From contig NZ_CP098039.1 in NCBI RefSeq assembly GCF_023650955.1, forward strand, positions 1,984,001 to 2,048,000: a stretch of 64,000 nt of DNA, given 5' to 3'. The position numbers and the translations under genes are program-made. How positions within the stretch are numbered: position 1 is the first letter of the stretch; each line of letters starts with the position of its first letter. The DNA comes from Thermosynechococcus sp. HN-54. Lineage in GTDB: Bacteria > Cyanobacteriota > Cyanobacteriia > Thermosynechococcales > Thermosynechococcaceae. Shown here in pieces: positions 25,592-31,671 of this stretch. The notes below the pieces were generated by a model. The model had not been told where the DNA came from and did not search any database. It saw only the letters and a list, made by a program, of their open reading frames with translations.

Positions 25592-28312
25592 ATGTCGCAC
25601 CCTCGTCGCCTCATTGAGTCCCGCTTGCCCCTACAACCCATCTCCGAGGCCTCCGCCCGCGAAAAGTCCATTCGCCACGGCCACATTTCTACGCTCCACA
25701 TCTGGTGGGCACGGCGACCCTTGGCGGCCAGTCGAGCAGCGGTCTTTGCCACCTTGGTACCCAATACCGATGAAAATGCCAAGCTGGTGGAGGCGATTGT
25801 CCCTTGGGAGGCGGTTAAAGATGGCAACACCCCGGCCATTGAGAAGGCGCGGCAGCAAATTTTAGAAGCTTTTGGTGGTACACCCCCACGGGTATTGGAT
25901 CTCTTTGCCGGGGGTGGGGCGATTCCCCTTGAGGCCTTGCGCTTGGGCTGTGAAACCTATGCCGTGGATTTGAATCCTGTAGCCTATTTGCTGCTGAAAG
26001 GGACACTGGAATACCCCCAACGCTATGGCCAGCCCAATAGCCGTGCGATTCCTGAATACATTCGCGCCCGTGATGCCCAAAACCGCACCCAACAATCTTT
26101 GCTGCTCAGTGGTGAGACGGGGGAATGGCAGCAGGCCTATGCCCAAAATCCCTTGGCCACGGAAGTGCGTTATTGGGGCGAGTGGGTATTGGAGCGAGCA
26201 CGCTCAGAACTAGCGGACTTTTATCCAGTAGATGGCGATGGCAAGACGCCGCTAGCCTATCTCTGGGCACGGACAGTGACGTGTACGAACCCCACCTGTC
26301 GAGCCGAAGTCCCGCTTGTGCGCCAATGGTGGCTAGCGAAAAAAGAGAAAAAGCGCCTTGCCCTCAAACCCTGCGTGGATACAGCAACGAAAACCATCAC
26401 CTTTGATGTGGTGGAAGTCCCTGCGGGAGCCACTTGGCCAGAGGAGGGCACTGTTCAGCGGGGGAATGCAACGTGTCCAGTTTGTGGGACAACGATTCCA
26501 GCCAAAGATATTCAAACTAAGGCGAGGAAAAAACAGTGGGGACAAAGAATCATGGCTACTGTCTTATCTGACCAGCGTGGGGATGGCAAAGTTTATCGGT
26601 CAGCCAATCAAGATGACTTCGATAGCTTTGAGAAAGCAAAAACTAGGCTTTCGGAGGTTGCTCAACTCAGTAGTTCCTTTGAGAATTTGCCACTCCTACC
26701 CAATGAGCCAATTCCCTATGACCCCAGAGCTTTTACACCCTGTATTTACGGATTCCAAACTTGGGGAGACCTCTTTAACGCGCGGCAAGCCTTGGCCTTG
26801 GTCACGTTTGCCCAGTGGGTTCGCGCTGCCCACACAGAAATGCTGCAACGGGGCATGGAGGAGGAGTTCGCAAAGGCAGTCACAACCTACTTGAGCCTAA
26901 TTCTTGATCGTGTGATTGACAAAAATGCTTCCATTGTTGTTTGGGACAACACACGGGATAACCCAACTCACGTTTTCTCGCGTCAAGCTCTACCCATGGT
27001 TTGGGATTATGCGGAAATTAATCCCTTAATTAATAATGGTTGGCCTAACGCAGCTCAGTGGGTTTGGCTCTCTATTCAATCGCTTTCTTTTGCAAGTATC
27101 TTGCCTGTTACTGTAAAACGCGCAACTGCCACATCTCTTCCCTTTACTGACAACTTCTTTGATGCCATTGTCACCGATCCCCCCTACTACGATGCTGTGC
27201 CCTATGCTGACCTCTCGGACTTTTTCTATGTCTGGCTGCGGCGCACCGTCGGGCATCTCTATCCAGAGCACTTTCGCACCCCCCTCACCCCCAAAGGCCA
27301 AGAAATTGTCCAAAATCCCGTCCGCCACAGTGGTGACAACGACAAGGCCAAAGCTTTCTTTGAAACCATGATGCAGCAGGCCTTTCAGGAAATGCACCGC
27401 ATCCTCAAACCACGGGGAAAAGCCACCATTGTCTTTGCCCACAAAAGCACCGATGCTTGGGAAACCCTGATTAGCGCCCTCATTGCCGCTGGCTTTCAGG
27501 TGCAAGCCTCATGGCCACTGCATACAGAAATGCAAACACGCCTACGGGCACGCAACTCAGCGGCACTGGCCTCTTCAACATTCCTCAGTTGCACCAAGCG
27601 GGAGGGTGGTCAGCGGGGCTTGTTCACCAGTGTGCGCAATCAGATGCAAGCGTCGATTCGGCCTCGCCTAGAGCAGTTTTGGCAAGCGGGGATTCGTGGC
27701 GCGGACTTTTTCATGTCGGCGATCGGCCCAGGGCTAGAGGCCTACAGTGCCTACGATGTGGTGCAACGTGCCGATGGTCGGGCAGTCACCGTGGGCGAAC
27801 TCTTGATGGAGGTACGCAAAATTGTGCTGGAGTTTGCCCTTGAGCAGGTGCTGGGGACAACAAGTGTCGCTGATGTGGATAGCCCGACGCAATTTGCCCT
27901 CTTGGCACTGTGGGCCTATGGCAATGAGTTGCCCTCCGATGAAGCCCGCAAGCTGGCCCAAAGTACCGGGGTGGAGTTGAGTGAGCTGGGCAGTCTAGTG
28001 CAGATCAAGGGAGAAAAGACCCTCTTGCCCAGTGCCAAGGAACGCAGCCAAAAGGACAAGAACTTTGGGTTTGGTGAGGCGGTACCCATCATTGATGCCC
28101 TGCATCGGTCACTGTTGCTGCTGCCAGAGGAAGGCCGCGAGGGGGTTGCCAAGTACCTCGATGAGGTGGGGTATCTTCAGCAGCCGAGTTTTTGGGTGGT
28201 GACCCAAGCCCTTGCCGATATTCTCGATGACCGCTTGCTTCATGAATTCCTCGCCTATCGCGAAAGTCTGCCGCAACTGATTCAACCTGATCAAGGACAA
28301 CTCAGCCTATGA
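25592..28312 (+). CDS. DUF1156/COG1743 DNA methylase with zinc ribbon
   Basis: This is a 906-residue putative adenine-specific DNA methyltransferase. The DUF1156 N-terminus has the segment EKSIRHGHISTLHIWWARRPLAASRA (quoted: HISTLHIWWARRPLA). SAM-binding motif I is VLDLFAGGGAIPLEALRLG near residue 100. A zinc-ribbon-like region is formed by CTNPTC and CPVCGTTIP. The catalytic motif IV DPPYYDAVPYADL lies near residue 529. A GTG at 25562 overlaps the livM stop and is in frame, but the family N-terminus starts with MSHPRR at 25592. Family members usually sit in defence modules with helicases or ATPases, but here no partner is visible. The anti-sigma gene overlaps its stop by ATGA. Confidence 0.85.
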   Translation: MSHPRRLIESRLPLQPISEASAREKSIRHGHISTLHIWWARRPLAASRAAVFATLVPNTDENAKLVEAIVPWEAVKDGNTPAIEKARQQILEAFGGTPPRVLDLFAGGGAIPLEALRLGCETYAVDLNPVAYLLLKGTLEYPQRYGQPNSRAIPEYIRARDAQNRTQQSLLLSGETGEWQQAYAQNPLATEVRYWGEWVLERARSELADFYPVDGDGKTPLAYLWARTVTCTNPTCRAEVPLVRQWWLAKKEKKRLALKPCVDTATKTITFDVVEVPAGATWPEEGTVQRGNATCPVCGTTIPAKDIQTKARKKQWGQRIMATVLSDQRGDGKVYRSANQDDFDSFEKAKTRLSEVAQLSSSFENLPLLPNEPIPYDPRAFTPCIYGFQTWGDLFNARQALALVTFAQWVRAAHTEMLQRGMEEEFAKAVTTYLSLILDRVIDKNASIVVWDNTRDNPTHVFSRQALPMVWDYAEINPLINNGWPNAAQWVWLSIQSLSFASILPVTVKRATATSLPFTDNFFDAIVTDPPYYDAVPYADLSDFFYVWLRRTVGHLYPEHFRTPLTPKGQEIVQNPVRHSGDNDKAKAFFETMMQQAFQEMHRILKPRGKATIVFAHKSTDAWETLISALIAAGFQVQASWPLHTEMQTRLRARNSAALASSTFLSCTKREGGQRGLFTSVRNQMQASIRPRLEQFWQAGIRGADFFMSAIGPGLEAYSAYDVVQRADGRAVTVGELLMEVRKIVLEFALEQVLGTTSVADVDSPTQFALLALWAYGNELPSDEARKLAQSTGVELSELGSLVQIKGEKTLLPSAKERSQKDKNFGFGEAVPIIDALHRSLLLLPEEGREGVAKYLDEVGYLQQPSFWVVTQALADILDDRLLHEFLAYRESLPQLIQPDQGQLSL

Positions 28313-28746
28313 CGCCTCCCTTCACGACGGTTTCCCTAACCTTGCCCAGTGACCTGACACAGCTTGAGGCTCTATTGGCATGGTTCAATCAGTACCGTCC
28401 GACGACGCTGCCCCTTGAGGAGTGGTTGAAACTAGAGCTAGCTCTCGCAGAGGGATTCACCAATGCCGTTCGCCATGCCCATCGCAATCGCGCCAGCAAC
28501 ACCCCCATTCGCATTGATCTCTCCCTTGCAGACACTGTGATTGAATTGCGCATCTGGGATCAAGGGGATCCCTTTGATTTGATGGCAAAGCTAAAAACGC
28601 TGCCCTCCCAAATTGCTCTTGATGCTGAAGGGGGACGCGGCCTGCGCCTCTTGGCAACCATTATGGATGAATTGGACTATCAACGCATTGACACGGGCGG
28701 CAACTGTTTGATTCTGCGCAAAACTGTGAAGTCCAAACCCCAATAG
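28309..28746 (+). CDS. RsbW-like serine kinase/anti-sigma regulatory factor (HATPase_c_2)
   Basis: The 145-residue ATP-binding protein of the GHKL family has the N-box ELALAEGFTNAVRHAHRN, the G1 box IWDQGDPFDL and the G2 box EGGRGLRLLAT. These proteins phosphorylate STAS-domain anti-anti-sigma factors or sequester sigma factors, acting in partner-switching modules. No STAS or PP2C partner gene lies nearby. The ATG overlaps the preceding methylase stop (ATGA), so translation is coupled. Confidence 0.9.
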   Translation: MTPPFTTVSLTLPSDLTQLEALLAWFNQYRPTTLPLEEWLKLELALAEGFTNAVRHAHRNRASNTPIRIDLSLADTVIELRIWDQGDPFDLMAKLKTLPSQIALDAEGGRGLRLLATIMDELDYQRIDTGGNCLILRKTVKSKPQ

Positions 28747-28750
28747 GCCG

Positions 28751-29575
28751 CTATTTGTGGGGAAAAAGGCGGGCTTCCAGTTCTTCATAGGGGGCATCAA
28801 AGGGACAGCGATCGCTCATCGAACAGTGGCGACAGTATTTGCTATCGCTATAACGTTCGAGGTTCTGACGGTTAAAAAAGTAAGGTTTGTGGCTAAACGT
28901 GCTGGCGACCCACTGCCACGAAAGGTTATTACTTGCTGGATCGCCATCGAGCAAGTGCTGCAAAAACCAAGCGGCTCCCGCCTGCCAGCGCACGCGACAC
29001 CAATGCACCACATAAGCTGCCAGCCAGAGTCGGGCATGATTGTGCAAGTACCCCGTTTGTTGCAGGTCGCAACTAAAGGCATCCATACAGGCTAGACCCG
29101 TTTCCCCAGCGAGGAGGGCAGGGGGCAATTCCGGTTGATAATCTGTTGCTTGCCAACCCGTTTTGTAGGGTTCAATGTCCTGCCACAGGCGATCGCCCCA
29201 ACGGGCATAGAGGCGCTGCCAATAGTCTCGCCACGCCAGTTGTTGGAGGAGAGCCTCCGCTTGATGGGGGTGAGCTACCGCTTGCCACACGCGATCGCGC
29301 ACCGTTGCCAAACTAATCACCCCATGGCGCAAATAGGCCGAAAGCCCCGTCACTGCCCCCGCCAAGAAATTGCGAGTCTTGCCATAGCGTAGGGGCTGGA
29401 TTTTTTCCAAACGCTCTTGAGCCGCTCTTTGACCCCCACGGGTTTCACTGACAACATCGTCGTCTCCCACCACATCTGCAAACACTTGACGTAGGTAGGG
29501 CACATAGGCGTCACGCATGCCTTGAATTCGCTCCACAGCCGCCGCACGAAGCAAGTCTTCAGGAGAGTGAGTCAT
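28751..29575 (-). CDS. Half-size photolyase/cryptochrome-like FAD-binding protein
   Basis: The 274-residue protein corresponds to the FAD-binding helical domain of photolyases only. The segment YGKTRNFLAGAVTGLSAYLRHG is the usual FAD entry motif, and FLQHLLDGDPASNNLSWQWVASTFSHKPYFFN is the conserved core that binds FAD (quoted: DGDPASNNLSWQWVAST). The N-terminal antenna (MTHF or 8-HDF) Rossmann domain is absent. The C-terminus has an unusual cysteine group C-x2-C-x6-C (KYCRHCSMSDRCPFD) that might bind a metal or Fe-S cluster. This may be a repair or signalling flavoprotein. It converges with the anti-sigma gene with four bases between the stops. Confidence 0.88.
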   Translation of the reverse strand: MTHSPEDLLRAAAVERIQGMRDAYVPYLRQVFADVVGDDDVVSETRGGQRAAQERLEKIQPLRYGKTRNFLAGAVTGLSAYLRHGVISLATVRDRVWQAVAHPHQAEALLQQLAWRDYWQRLYARWGDRLWQDIEPYKTGWQATDYQPELPPALLAGETGLACMDAFSCDLQQTGYLHNHARLWLAAYVVHWCRVRWQAGAAWFLQHLLDGDPASNNLSWQWVASTFSHKPYFFNRQNLERYSDSKYCRHCSMSDRCPFDAPYEELEARLFPHK

Positions 29576-29579
29576 GGGT

Positions 29580-30308
29580 CTAGGGAGTGAGCAAACGTTG
29601 CAGGCGATCGCGATTATCTAAGTGTCCGACAATGCGGCGCACGGGTTGCGGATAAACCCGCACTAAGGTTGGTGTGGCTTGGACTTGATCCTCCTCTGCC
29701 AGTTCCGGCTGCTTCGTCACATCCACCACCTTGAGGGTATAGGGCACCTTCAGGGAGCGACTCAGCAAATCATGGAGGTTTTTCAGGGCGACCTCAGCCG
29801 CATGGGTTTCCCCGCGCACATAGAGGCGAAAGACATAGCGATCGGGTTCCGAAGGACGCGGTGCAAAAGTGCTGAGGGGTGTCGCCTCCTGCAAATCATA
29901 GACGAGCTGGTGATGCTCCCACAGTTGAGGAAAGCTGCTGCGGTAGGCCTCTAGGGCTTGCAGATCGCAAGGATGCTGCGGATCCTGTACCAGCTGCCAA
30001 GGCAACACTGGTTGGTCAGGCGGGGCAAACAGAGCATTCAAGAGGGGACGATGCGGCCACGCCAAAGGATAGACCTCCGCCGCCACCCGTAGGCATTGCT
30101 GCTCCTCATCAAACCAATAATCTACCGCCGCTGTGTAGCAGGGAGAGAGAAATAGGGGTGGCTCCTCCAAATCCAAGAGTTGTTGCAAGGCTTGACAGAG
30201 CGATCGGTGCCACTGTCCCTGCTTGGAGGGGTCACGGCAAAAGACCACATCCTCCCCCGGTGTAAAGAGCGCCAACCCCTTGTATAAGACAGGCTTGAGG
30301 TTAACCAT
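29580..30308 (-). CDS. KaiB-domain protein with N-terminal extension
   Basis: The 242-residue product carries a C-terminal KaiB-like thioredoxin fold (about residues 155-240): RLYVRGETHAAEVALKNL, then LKVVDVTKQPELAEEDQVQATPTLVRVYPQPVRRIVG, followed by NRDRLQRLL (quoted parts: LAEEDQVQATPTL, PVRRIVG). These match the KaiB consensus closely. The first 150 residues are of unknown type, not a histidine kinase as in SasA. The start at 30308 lies four bases after the pilT stop, so it is probably translationally coupled to the pilus retraction ATPase. An in-frame extension upstream overlaps pilT and is rejected. Confidence 0.85.
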   Translation of the reverse strand: MVNLKPVLYKGLALFTPGEDVVFCRDPSKQGQWHRSLCQALQQLLDLEEPPLFLSPCYTAAVDYWFDEEQQCLRVAAEVYPLAWPHRPLLNALFAPPDQPVLPWQLVQDPQHPCDLQALEAYRSSFPQLWEHHQLVYDLQEATPLSTFAPRPSEPDRYVFRLYVRGETHAAEVALKNLHDLLSRSLKVPYTLKVVDVTKQPELAEEDQVQATPTLVRVYPQPVRRIVGHLDNRDRLQRLLTP

Positions 30309-30312
30309 TGCC

Positions 30313-31671
30313 CTAGACACGACCCCGCAGAATTTGCGCCATTTCGTTAGGTTTGGGAGAGTGTTCGATAGCGGTTTCTTCGTCAATCCGCCCCGCCTCA
30401 TAGAGTTCATAGAGGCACTGGTTCATCGTGCACATGCCGTCGTAGGTACACTGCGGAATAATCGCCTCGATTTCCTCCACTTCACCCCGCAAAATGTAGT
30501 CCTTGATGGCATCGGTGTTGATCATGATCTCGTGAATCGCCGCCCGCTTGCCATCCGTCGTGCGCACAAGGGCTTGGGCAATGACCGCCACCAGCGATTC
30601 TGCCACCTGCATCCGCATTGGCCCCTGTTCATCGGGGTTGTAGAGGTTGAGGATCCGCTCAATCGTTTTCACGGCACTGTTGGTGTGCAACGTACCAAAG
30701 ACCAAGTGACCCGTTTGCGCTGCTTTTAGGGCTGTATTCACTGTCTCGCGATCGCGCATCTCCCCAATCAGAATAATGTCGGGGTCTTCCCGCAGTGAAG
30801 CCTTGAGGGCATTGTCAAATTTCAGCGTGTGGATGCCCACCTCCCGCTGGCGAATCAAAGAACGGCGGCTTTGGTGCACAAACTCAATCGGGTCTTCAAT
30901 CGAGATAATGTGCTTTTGCATTTCCGTGTTGATGTAGTCCACCATTGCCGCAAGGGTAGTGGACTTCCCAGAACCTGTGGGTCCTGTCACCAGAATCAAG
31001 CCCTTGTGATAGTGGCAGAGATCCTTGAAGACCGGCGGTAAGTTCAACTGCTCCAGCGTGAGAATCTTCACAGGGATCAAGCGCAGCACCATGGCGGGGC
31101 CTTTGAGGGCGACAAAGATGTTAATCCGCACACGGCATAGCCCCTCGTACTGGTAGGCGCCATCGTATTCCAAATGGGTGCGAAACTGCTCAATTTGTTG
31201 CGGTGTCAGCAGTTCGTTGAGCCAGTAGTTAAAGGTTTCTTCATCAGTCACGGGGTAGTTGGTGATTTCTAATTTCCCGCGATCGCGAAAGCGCGGCGCT
31301 TCGCCAACCCCCACGTGAATATCGGAATAGCCGTGCTCAAAAGCCTCGCGCACCAGTTGTTCCATCGTGGGGCCAGAAATACGCGCGGCCGGTGTCGGCA
31401 TCGGTTGGGTCGGTACCCCCTGTTGGGGCATTCCCGGCTGCGGTGGCATCGGTCGTGGGGGCATCCCCGGTTGCGGTGGCATGGGTCGGGGCGGCATGCC
31501 CGGTTGGGGAGGCATCCCTTGGGGTGGGGGGGCAGTAGGCCGGGGCGGCGCCATTCCCGGTTGGGGGGGCATCGGCGGAGCACCCGCCCCCATTGGCGGA
31601 CGGGGGGGAGCCATTGGCGGTGAATTGGGCACACGCGGCGGTGGAGGAGGAGGACTTTGGGGATTGGTCAT
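30313..31671 (-). CDS. pilT: Type IV pilus retraction ATPase PilT with proline-rich N-terminus
   Basis: PilT drives pilus retraction and so twitching motility and phototaxis. The 452-residue protein has the Walker A GPTGSGKSTTLAA, Asp box DPIEFVH, Walker B IILIGEMRDRETV and His box TGHLVFGTLHTN. The C-terminal AIREIM-like motif is AIHEIMINTDAI. Ahead of the PilT core is an unusual 95-residue segment of Pro, Met and Gly, including two 11-residue repeats of GMPPRPMPPQP. Its function is not known and may involve protein binding. The following KaiB-domain gene is coupled to it, so the two may act in one pilus-control unit. Confidence 0.95.
   Translation of the reverse strand: MTNPQSPPPPPPRVPNSPPMAPPRPPMGAGAPPMPPQPGMAPPRPTAPPPQGMPPQPGMPPRPMPPQPGMPPRPMPPQPGMPQQGVPTQPMPTPAARISGPTMEQLVREAFEHGYSDIHVGVGEAPRFRDRGKLEITNYPVTDEETFNYWLNELLTPQQIEQFRTHLEYDGAYQYEGLCRVRINIFVALKGPAMVLRLIPVKILTLEQLNLPPVFKDLCHYHKGLILVTGPTGSGKSTTLAAMVDYINTEMQKHIISIEDPIEFVHQSRRSLIRQREVGIHTLKFDNALKASLREDPDIILIGEMRDRETVNTALKAAQTGHLVFGTLHTNSAVKTIERILNLYNPDEQGPMRMQVAESLVAVIAQALVRTTDGKRAAIHEIMINTDAIKDYILRGEVEEIEAIIPQCTYDGMCTMNQCLYELYEAGRIDEETAIEHSPKPNEMAQILRGRV
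31437..31502. repeat. 33-bp tandem repeats encoding GMPPRPMPPQP in pilT
   Basis: Two near-identical 33-bp units lie in the proline-rich N-terminus of pilT, each encoding the 11-residue unit GMPPRPMPPQP. They are part of a longer stretch of degenerate PPQPGM units. Boundaries are approximate. Copy number could vary between strains. Confidence 0.6.

What the first reader, a model, noticed from the sequence alone, without database searches (positions are those of the whole stretch)
29580..31671. KaiB-domain protein translationally coupled to PilT
A protein with a clear KaiB-like fold at its C-terminus (LAEEDQVQATPTL and PVRRIVG) and an unknown 150-residue N-terminus starts four bases after the pilT stop. 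This links a clock-type fold to the pilus retraction motor, in a window that also contains the phototaxis operon. It may be a time- or redox-dependent regulator of pilus retraction. I do not recall a described function.
Basis: partly seen in the sequence, partly recalled or inferred. Interest (0 to 1): 0.6.

Follow-up and report, generated by a model that had tools for sequence, protein, structure and literature searches.

The report
KaiB-like protein paired with PilT2
Next to a gene for an accessory pilus-retraction motor, many cyanobacteria keep a two-part relative of the clock protein KaiB that appears locked in its binding-ready shape, which suggests a role at the pilus motor for a protein whose job is an open question.

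Summary
In a Thermosynechococcus-like chromosome, pilT (30313-31671, minus) is followed after 4 nt by a 242-aa protein (29580-30308) with a C-terminal KaiB domain (Pfam 103.8 bits). The protein is not undescribed: it is the "elongated KaiB", whose KaiB domain from T. vestitus (KaiB-TV-4, PDB 8UBH, 88% identical) was shown by NMR to be stably fold-switched. Its role was left open. The motor is the accessory PilT2, not the pilBTC-type PilT1.

New here: the pilT2-elongated-KaiB order is kept in 76 of 85 testable genomes across 24 families; the commonest other real neighbour reaches 16 of 89 loci. The residues that hold KaiB in its resting fold are gone (G89 in 0, D91 in 1 of 66). Of 27 positions shared by the KaiC binders KaiB and SasA, the three lost (53, 58, 60) all lie on the KaiC-facing helix.

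Best reading: a locked KaiB-fold adaptor working with PilT2, perhaps not reading KaiC in the usual way. Against an exclusive PilT2 role: four genomes keep the protein without PilT2, five have PilT2 elsewhere, and in one genome it is broken together with kaiB. No binding was tested.

The parts
30313..31671 (-). pilT2: PilT-family retraction ATPase with a proline-rich N-terminal tail of about 95 residues
   Evidence: ORF; TIGR01420 468.4 bits, cut-off 319.1; a second, PilT1-like gene at G000:C1:2122656-2123708
30309..30312 (.). four-base gap between the pilT2 stop and the KaiB-4 start
   Evidence: sequence; gap 4 in 6 of 6 Thermosynechococcus loci examined
29580..30308 (-). elongated KaiB (KaiB-4), 242 aa
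   Evidence: family alignment for the start
29880..30308 (-). N-terminal domain (residues 1-143), alpha/beta domain of cyanobacteria, no assigned fold
   Evidence: AF2 pLDDT 87.7, pTM 0.82; profile found in 201 of 388 class genomes; no clear PDB or Pfam match
29583..29837 (-). KaiB domain (residues 158-242), modelled in the fold-switched thioredoxin-like form
   Evidence: PF07689; AF2 strand-helix order in the best of five models; VIA Z 15.2 to fsKaiB 5jwr_D and 12.8 to 8ubh
29679..29708 (-). segment equivalent to KaiB residues 51-60 (helix alpha2, the KaiC-facing helix), rewritten in this family at 53, 58, 60 (in the window protein at 58 and 60)
   Evidence: alpha2 as KaiC contact from PMC6769508 (passages)

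Best explanation
The gene is elongated KaiB (KaiB-4): a two-domain, non-enzymatic adaptor made together with the accessory pilus-retraction ATPase PilT2. Its KaiB domain is locked in the thioredoxin-like, binding-ready fold because the positions that hold KaiB in its resting fold are gone. Its former KaiC-facing helix carries a family-specific, conserved signature, so it most likely docks a fixed partner of its own, with PilT2 or another part of the pilus motor as the first candidate, while the conserved N-terminal domain supplies the second contact or the signal input. Net effect (inferred): it tunes or recruits PilT2 activity. Shown here or in print: domains, fold class, conserved gene pair, residue pattern. 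Inferred: the lock for the whole family, binding to PilT2, effect on retraction, any timing input.
For: Gene pair: PilT2 lies directly upstream on the same strand in 61 of 66 genomes of sample 1 and 15 of 19 testable of sample 2, together 76 of 85 in 24 families; the 9 exceptions are scattered over the tree (8 changes, at least 5 forced). Flanks are not kept: in 89 loci the commonest other real neighbour, a wecB-like gene, is found in 16 (larger clusters there were antisense frames lying over pilT2 itself; many loci have only about 1.5 kb of flank). In 27 loci with PilT2 but without KaiB-4 (of 33 such genomes, G197 aside; those for which a locus was returned), no downstream gene within about 1.5 kb is shared by more than 5. 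63 of 66 KaiB-4 genomes have PilT2. G039 keeps the pair although no KaiA, no KaiC over the cut-off and no separate KaiB was found. Locked fold: 8UBH NMR; AF2; TeKaiB G89 and D91 are 21 of 21 in KaiB1, but G89 0 and D91 1 of 66 in KaiB-4, and G89A/D91R is the published fold-switch pair (passage). Helix signature: Q53 56, Q58 53, S60 55 of 66.
Against: KaiB-4 persists without PilT2 in G051, G233 and G256, and intact beside a pilT2 remnant in G183; in the G051/G233 pair it is still under purifying selection (dN/dS 0.16, few changes). Two of 66 (G185, G191) and three of the second sample (G246, G253, G338) have PilT2 elsewhere. PilT2 exists without an intact KaiB-4 in 34 of 48 class genomes. The proline-rich PilT2 tail is alike with and without KaiB-4. 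In G147 KaiB-4 and kaiB1 are both broken, which points to the clock, though pilT2 is a remnant there too. In G248 KaiB-4 lies in three frames while PilT2 (elsewhere), KaiA, KaiC and kaiB1 are found, so it looks dispensable or is an assembly error. Conserved gene order can outlast function. No binding evidence exists.
Confidence: 0.45

Rival explanations
1. Clock-to-motor adaptor. [quoted passage not shown]
For: Fold-switched KaiB is the KaiC-binding form (passages). KaiA is in 65 of 66 KaiB-4 genomes. KaiC was tested in ten chosen genomes only: a hit in 10, over the cut-off in 9. P51, E55 and A61-P63 of the KaiC-facing half are kept. KaiB-4 and kaiB1 are broken together in G147. Clock control of natural competence is known in S. 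elongatus (PMC7125226, passages); a paper on pilus oscillation was seen only as a reference title.
Against: Of 27 positions shared by KaiB1 and SasA, KaiB-4 loses only 53, 58 and 60, all on helix alpha2, the main KaiC contact (chance of all three falling among the 6 shared alpha2 positions 0.007, computed after seeing the result). The lateral ring contacts are lost or mixed: R23 R in 31, K26 K in 14, D91 D in 1 of 66. Almost all class genomes have a clock, so co-occurrence says little. G039 keeps the pair without detected KaiA or canonical KaiC, unless the assembly has a gap.
Confidence: 0.2
2. Clock accessory that only sits beside pilT2. KaiB-4 modulates the oscillator or CikA/KaiA through its conserved beta2 strand, and the gene order is ancestral legacy.
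For: beta2 (KaiA/CikA-binding strand) is kept: Y40 66, L42 61, K43 64 of 66 (strand role from passages). KaiB-4 survives loss of PilT2 and is broken with kaiB1 in G147.
Against: Legacy order would be expected to erode like the flanks, yet the pair alone is kept in 24 families. The KaiA/CikA contact A41 is T in 64 of 66. The KaiC-facing helix is rewritten. G248 has KaiB-4 in three frames with the clock genes present, and G039 has KaiB-4 with no clock genes detected.
Confidence: 0.2
3. Thiol-redox regulator: the thioredoxin-like domain senses or transmits redox state to the pilus.
For: Thioredoxin-like fold. The N-terminal domain has cysteines kept at C24 57, C38 65, C57 45, C114 57 of 66.
Against: The KaiB domain lacks any cysteine in 59 of 66 members, so it has no thioredoxin active site; N-domain cysteines may be structural.
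Confidence: 0.06

Closest known systems
Elongated KaiB / KaiB-4 (Schmelling 2017 PMC5520375; KaiB-TV-4, PDB 8UBH, Wayment-Steele 2023 PMC10808063)
   Same: Same protein family: about 150-residue N-terminal extension plus a KaiB domain; KaiB domain 88% identical to 8UBH (10 differences in the 85 aligned residues); locked fold-switched state
   Different: A term search of PMC5520375 for 'pil' and 'twitching' found nothing; the passages seen of PMC10808063 do not mention pilT. New here: the conserved pilT2 neighbour, the helix alpha2 signature, a model of the N-terminal domain
KaiB (KaiB1, circadian oscillator)
   Same: Homologous domain; PF07689
   Different: Below both KaiB equivalog cut-offs (82.4 of 145.3; 84.1 of 110); family lacks G89, D91 (1 of 66) and K58; has an extra domain
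SasA N-terminal domain
   Same: KaiB-related thioredoxin-like domain fused to another domain, used as a fixed adaptor
   Different: No histidine kinase domain matched; KaiB domain is C-terminal; basic residue at 58 and L53 of SasA not kept in the family
Legionella KaiB Lpp1115 (4kun)
   Same: KaiB homologue crystallised in the fold-switched form; VIA Z 13.9; not involved in circadian rhythms but implicated in stress responses (PMC10808063, passage)
   Different: Single domain, 30-31% identity; any pilT link was not examined
PilT2 / PilU-type accessory retraction ATPases
   Same: The upstream gene: PilT family with proline-rich N-terminus, as PilT2 is characterised in PMC12288463 (passage)
   Different: None seen; a PilU-like role is a speculation of that review

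Membership tests
KaiB domain family (PF07689) | HMM match above the curated cut-off | tested here: met
   103.8 bits against 27
Elongated KaiB / KaiB-4 | KaiB domain with a conserved N-terminal extension of about 150 aa | tested here: met
   242 aa; N-domain profile matches 201 of 388 class genomes, with one match in nearly all listed rows (two in G147, G248, G259, G440); extension described in PMC5520375
Elongated KaiB / KaiB-4 | extension found only in cyanobacteria | not tested
   stated in PMC5520375; phyla outside Cyanobacteriota were not searched here
Elongated KaiB / KaiB-4 | KaiB domain stably in the fold-switched state | tested here: inconclusive
   model only for this protein: best of five AF2 models has the fold-switched order (pLDDT 77.6; the other four 52.9-58.1), VIA Z 15.2 to fsKaiB; NMR exists for the 88% identical orthologue
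Circadian KaiB (TIGR02654, NF006798) | score above equivalog cut-offs | tested here: not met
   82.4 of 145.3; 84.1 of 110
Circadian KaiB | residues G89 and D91, whose change favours the fold-switched state | tested here: not met
   L and T in the window protein; G89 in 0 and D91 in 1 of 66 family members, 21 of 21 KaiB1
KaiC CI-ring binders (KaiB1, SasA) | helix alpha2 residues shared by KaiB1 and SasA | tested here: not met
   3 of the 6 shared alpha2 positions lost in the family (53, 58, 60); in the window protein L53 is kept, 58 and 60 are Q
KaiC CI-ring binders | binding to KaiC | not testable with these tools
   no complex modelling or assay available
SasA | histidine kinase domain | tested here: not met
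   Pfam lists only KaiB and a sub-threshold thioredoxin match
Thioredoxins | active-site cysteines in the thioredoxin-fold domain | tested here: not met
   no Cys in residues 158-242
PilT2 | PilT family ATPase with proline-rich N-terminus, outside pilBTC | tested here: met
   TIGR01420 468.4 bits; tail visible; PilT1-like gene elsewhere beside a PilB-like frame
N-terminal domain: any known fold | structural match in the PDB | tested here: inconclusive
   Foldseek best E 0.12; VIA best Z 3.8, rmsd 6.0 over 95 residues

The most novel reading that the evidence does not exclude
Elongated KaiB is a direct, transcription-independent output of the Kai clock to the type IV pilus: it senses the oscillator (through KaiC, KaiA or CikA with a re-tuned interface) and sets PilT2 activity by time of day, giving cyanobacteria a gated retraction force.
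Probability: 0.17. Interest if true: 0.85.

Novelty: new variant of a known kind. Interest (0 to 1): 0.55.

Why it matters
The authors who solved KaiB-TV-4 wrote that its biological role remains to be found (PMC10808063, passage), and the function of PilT2 is also unsettled (PMC12288463, passage). A gene pair kept in 24 families joins the two open questions and says which partners to test first. If the protein acts on the motor, a metamorphic clock fold has been frozen and reused as a fixed adaptor, a clean example of how a fold-switching protein evolves into a stable one.

Tried and rejected
Fold of the N-terminal domain: Pfam on 28 members, PDB profile search (best E 0.029, unrelated names), Foldseek and VIA on the model gave nothing to build on. 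By eye its strand-helix order recalls longin or ADF-like domains (recall); VIA rows for ADF/cofilin have Z about 3, which is noise level, so I do not claim it. No longin or roadblock chain was listed; that excludes nothing.

Proline-rich PilT2 tail as the docking site for KaiB-4: rejected as a specific link because PilT2 without KaiB-4 has a similar tail (63 and 27 sequences compared). In the same call the PilT2 positions that differ most between the two groups lie mostly in the C-terminal third; this is confounded by phylogeny and not used.

sll1532 of Synechocystis as the homologue (my recall of gene order): dropped; passages of one paper speak of an rpoZ-sll1532 operon and a hypothetical protein.

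A role shared with the photolyase-like gene or with the chemotaxis-type operon: the first is adjacent only in the Thermosynechococcus loci, the second lies 25 kb away.

Literature: eight searches. No listed title or opened passage links KaiB-4 with pilT. Of the 16 papers that hold both 'KaiB' and 'PilT' and the 13 with 'KaiB' and 'type IV pili' I opened passages of one and judged the rest by title. Papers outside the library, such as Zhang 2024 (look-up failed), were not seen.

Rows dropped: the seven named-contig loci L036-L042 (L041 looks like the same genome as L074) and the truncated L082 were left out, leaving 66 rows; L120 (contig end) was left out. In the second sample I chose 20 of the 201 matching genomes, mostly from families not yet covered.

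Full report
What is there. The window is part of a 2.7-Mb chromosome; its closest named matches are Thermosynechococcus. On the minus strand, pilT (30313-31671, 452 aa) is followed after four bases by a 242-aa gene (29580-30308). Its C-terminal half is a KaiB domain (PF07689, 103.8 bits, cut-off 27). The genome holds three KaiB-domain genes over the cut-off: this one, KaiB itself, and a 402-aa frame that I take for SasA. The pilT product is above the PilT-family cut-off and carries a proline-rich tail; a second, PilT1-like gene sits about 107 kb away beside a PilB-like frame. By the description in a recent review (PMC12288463, passage) the gene in the window is pilT2.

It is a known protein without a known role. 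The PDB hit 8UBH is the KaiB domain of the T. vestitus orthologue, KaiB-TV-4 (10 differences in 85 residues of that alignment). Wayment-Steele 2023 (PMC10808063; passages) showed by NMR that it is stably fold-switched and monomeric, and left its role as an open question. Schmelling 2017 (PMC5520375; passages) described the elongated KaiB with its roughly 150-residue extension, without homologues outside cyanobacteria. A term search of that paper for 'pil' and 'twitching' found nothing.

Gene order. Among the 114 class genomes in the listing of an even draw, 66 carry an intact elongated KaiB. pilT2 is directly upstream on the same strand in 61 of the 66. A second set of 20 genomes, which I picked from the 201 of 388 class genomes with the N-terminal domain, gave 15 adjacent, 4 not, and 1 at a contig end. 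Together 76 of 85 testable genomes, in 24 anonymous families; the 9 exceptions need 8 changes on the protein tree, at least 5 forced by well-supported branches. Neighbours beyond the pair are not kept: across 89 loci the commonest other real gene is a wecB-like gene in 16, on the other strand; two larger clusters were antisense frames lying over pilT2. Many loci had only about 1.5 kb of flank, so this control is rough. In 27 loci with PilT2 but no elongated KaiB, no downstream gene is shared by more than 5. The exact four-base spacing occurs only in the 6 Thermosynechococcus loci examined; 9 of the 61 sample-1 genomes with the pair have gaps under 20 nt, the rest 25-924 nt. Strict translational coupling is therefore a minority feature while the ordered pair is general.

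Fold. AF2 with eight sequences gives the KaiB domain the strand-helix order of the fold-switched form in its best model (pLDDT 77.6, pTM 0.54; the other four models scored 52.9-58.1). Its best matches are fold-switched KaiB chains bound to KaiC (VIA Z 15.2, rmsd 1.7, 87 residues, 5jwr_D) and 8UBH (Z 12.8). The N-terminal domain alone is modelled with confidence (pLDDT 87.7, pTM 0.82; five models at 85.1-87.7) but matches nothing solved. No free-standing copy is among the listed matches, a list that was cut.

What the residues say. In circadian KaiB, the double change G89A/D91R shifts the protein to the fold-switched state (review PMC8059507, passage). Both residues are invariant in 21 KaiB1 sequences. 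Among the 66 elongated KaiBs G89 is never kept and D91 once, so the lock seen by NMR in one member probably holds for the family. KaiC is bound mainly through helix alpha2 (PMC6769508, passages). Of 27 positions shared by KaiB1 and SasA (21 sequences each), the two KaiC binders, the elongated family loses three: 53, 58 and 60, all on alpha2 (chance 0.007, computed after the fact). Yet the helix is conserved inside the family (Q53 56, Q58 53, S60 55 of 66). The simplest reading is a fixed partner at this face that is not KaiC, or KaiC bound differently. Which alpha2 side chains touch KaiC I could not check, for lack of coordinates. In the window protein itself L53 is kept.

Natural experiments, for and against. 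G051 and G233 lack PilT2; genes that elsewhere lie upstream of pilT2 now stand next to the elongated KaiB, so pilT2 was probably lost from between. The protein stays under purifying selection there (dN/dS 0.16, against 0.03-0.21 in 17 pairs with PilT2; few changes), though its stem branch is long (0.44). G183 keeps an intact elongated KaiB and kaiB1 beside a pilT2 remnant. G147 of the same genus has the elongated gene, kaiB1 and pilT2 all broken while KaiA and KaiC are present. G256 has the protein and only a PilT1-like gene. These cases argue that PilT2 is not its only reason to exist and that a clock tie is possible. Two cases point the other way: G039 keeps the pair with no KaiA, no KaiC over the cut-off and no separate KaiB found, and G248 has the elongated gene in three frames although PilT2 (elsewhere) and clock genes are found; both are draft assemblies. 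Finally 34 of 48 class genomes without an intact elongated KaiB have PilT2.

Verdict on mechanism. I hold it most likely (0.45) that the elongated KaiB is a locked adaptor working with PilT2 or the pilus motor; a clock-reading adaptor (0.20) and a clock accessory that merely lives beside pilT2 (0.20) remain serious rivals. A thiol-redox function of the KaiB domain is unlikely, since 59 of 66 members have no cysteine there, but four N-domain cysteines are well kept. Everything about binding and effect is inference.

Novelty. The protein and its fold are published; no listed title or opened passage in the held library ties it to pilT2 (searches; most of the listed papers were judged by title).

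Noticed in passing
window 28751-29575 (-): A 274-aa protein with only the FAD-binding half of a photolyase/cryptochrome starts four bases after the KaiB-4 stop; it is next to KaiB-4 in 6 of 6 Thermosynechococcus loci and was found in none of the other loci searched, whose flanks are short.
   Followed up: partly
L083 (G185) and L125 (G338), just downstream of KaiB-4: In two of the genomes where KaiB-4 is not next to pilT2, the next gene is cofH (8-HDF/F0 synthesis), well over its NCBIfam cut-off. Possibly coincidence, but 8-HDF is a photolyase antenna (recalled).
   Followed up: partly
L183, L182 (G147); L070, L184 (G183): In one genus with reduced genomes G183 has a pilT2 remnant with intact kaiB1 and KaiB-4, while G147 has all three broken with KaiA and KaiC still present.
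   Followed up: partly
G039 (L078) and G248: G039 keeps the pilT2-KaiB-4 pair although KaiA, canonical KaiC and a separate KaiB were not found; G248 has KaiB-4 in three frames with clock genes present. Both are draft assemblies.
   Followed up: no
89 loci; example L047:770-1891 (-): A wecB-like epimerase gene lies upstream of pilT2 on the other strand in 16 of 89 loci and a small membrane-protein gene without NCBIfam match in 13.
   Followed up: partly
L082 (G197): A 5'-truncated KaiB-4 keeps only the end of the N-domain and the KaiB domain, still downstream of pilT2.
   Followed up: partly
window 30308-29880 (-), KaiB-4 residues 24, 38, 57, 114: Four cysteines of the N-terminal domain are conserved (57, 65, 45, 57 of 66) with a WH motif, invariant in the 28 members of A3, near C38; metal, redox or core role unknown.
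   Followed up: no
   Followed up: no
window 28309-28746 (+): RsbW-like HATPase gene, convergent to the pilT2-KaiB-4 cluster.
   Followed up: no
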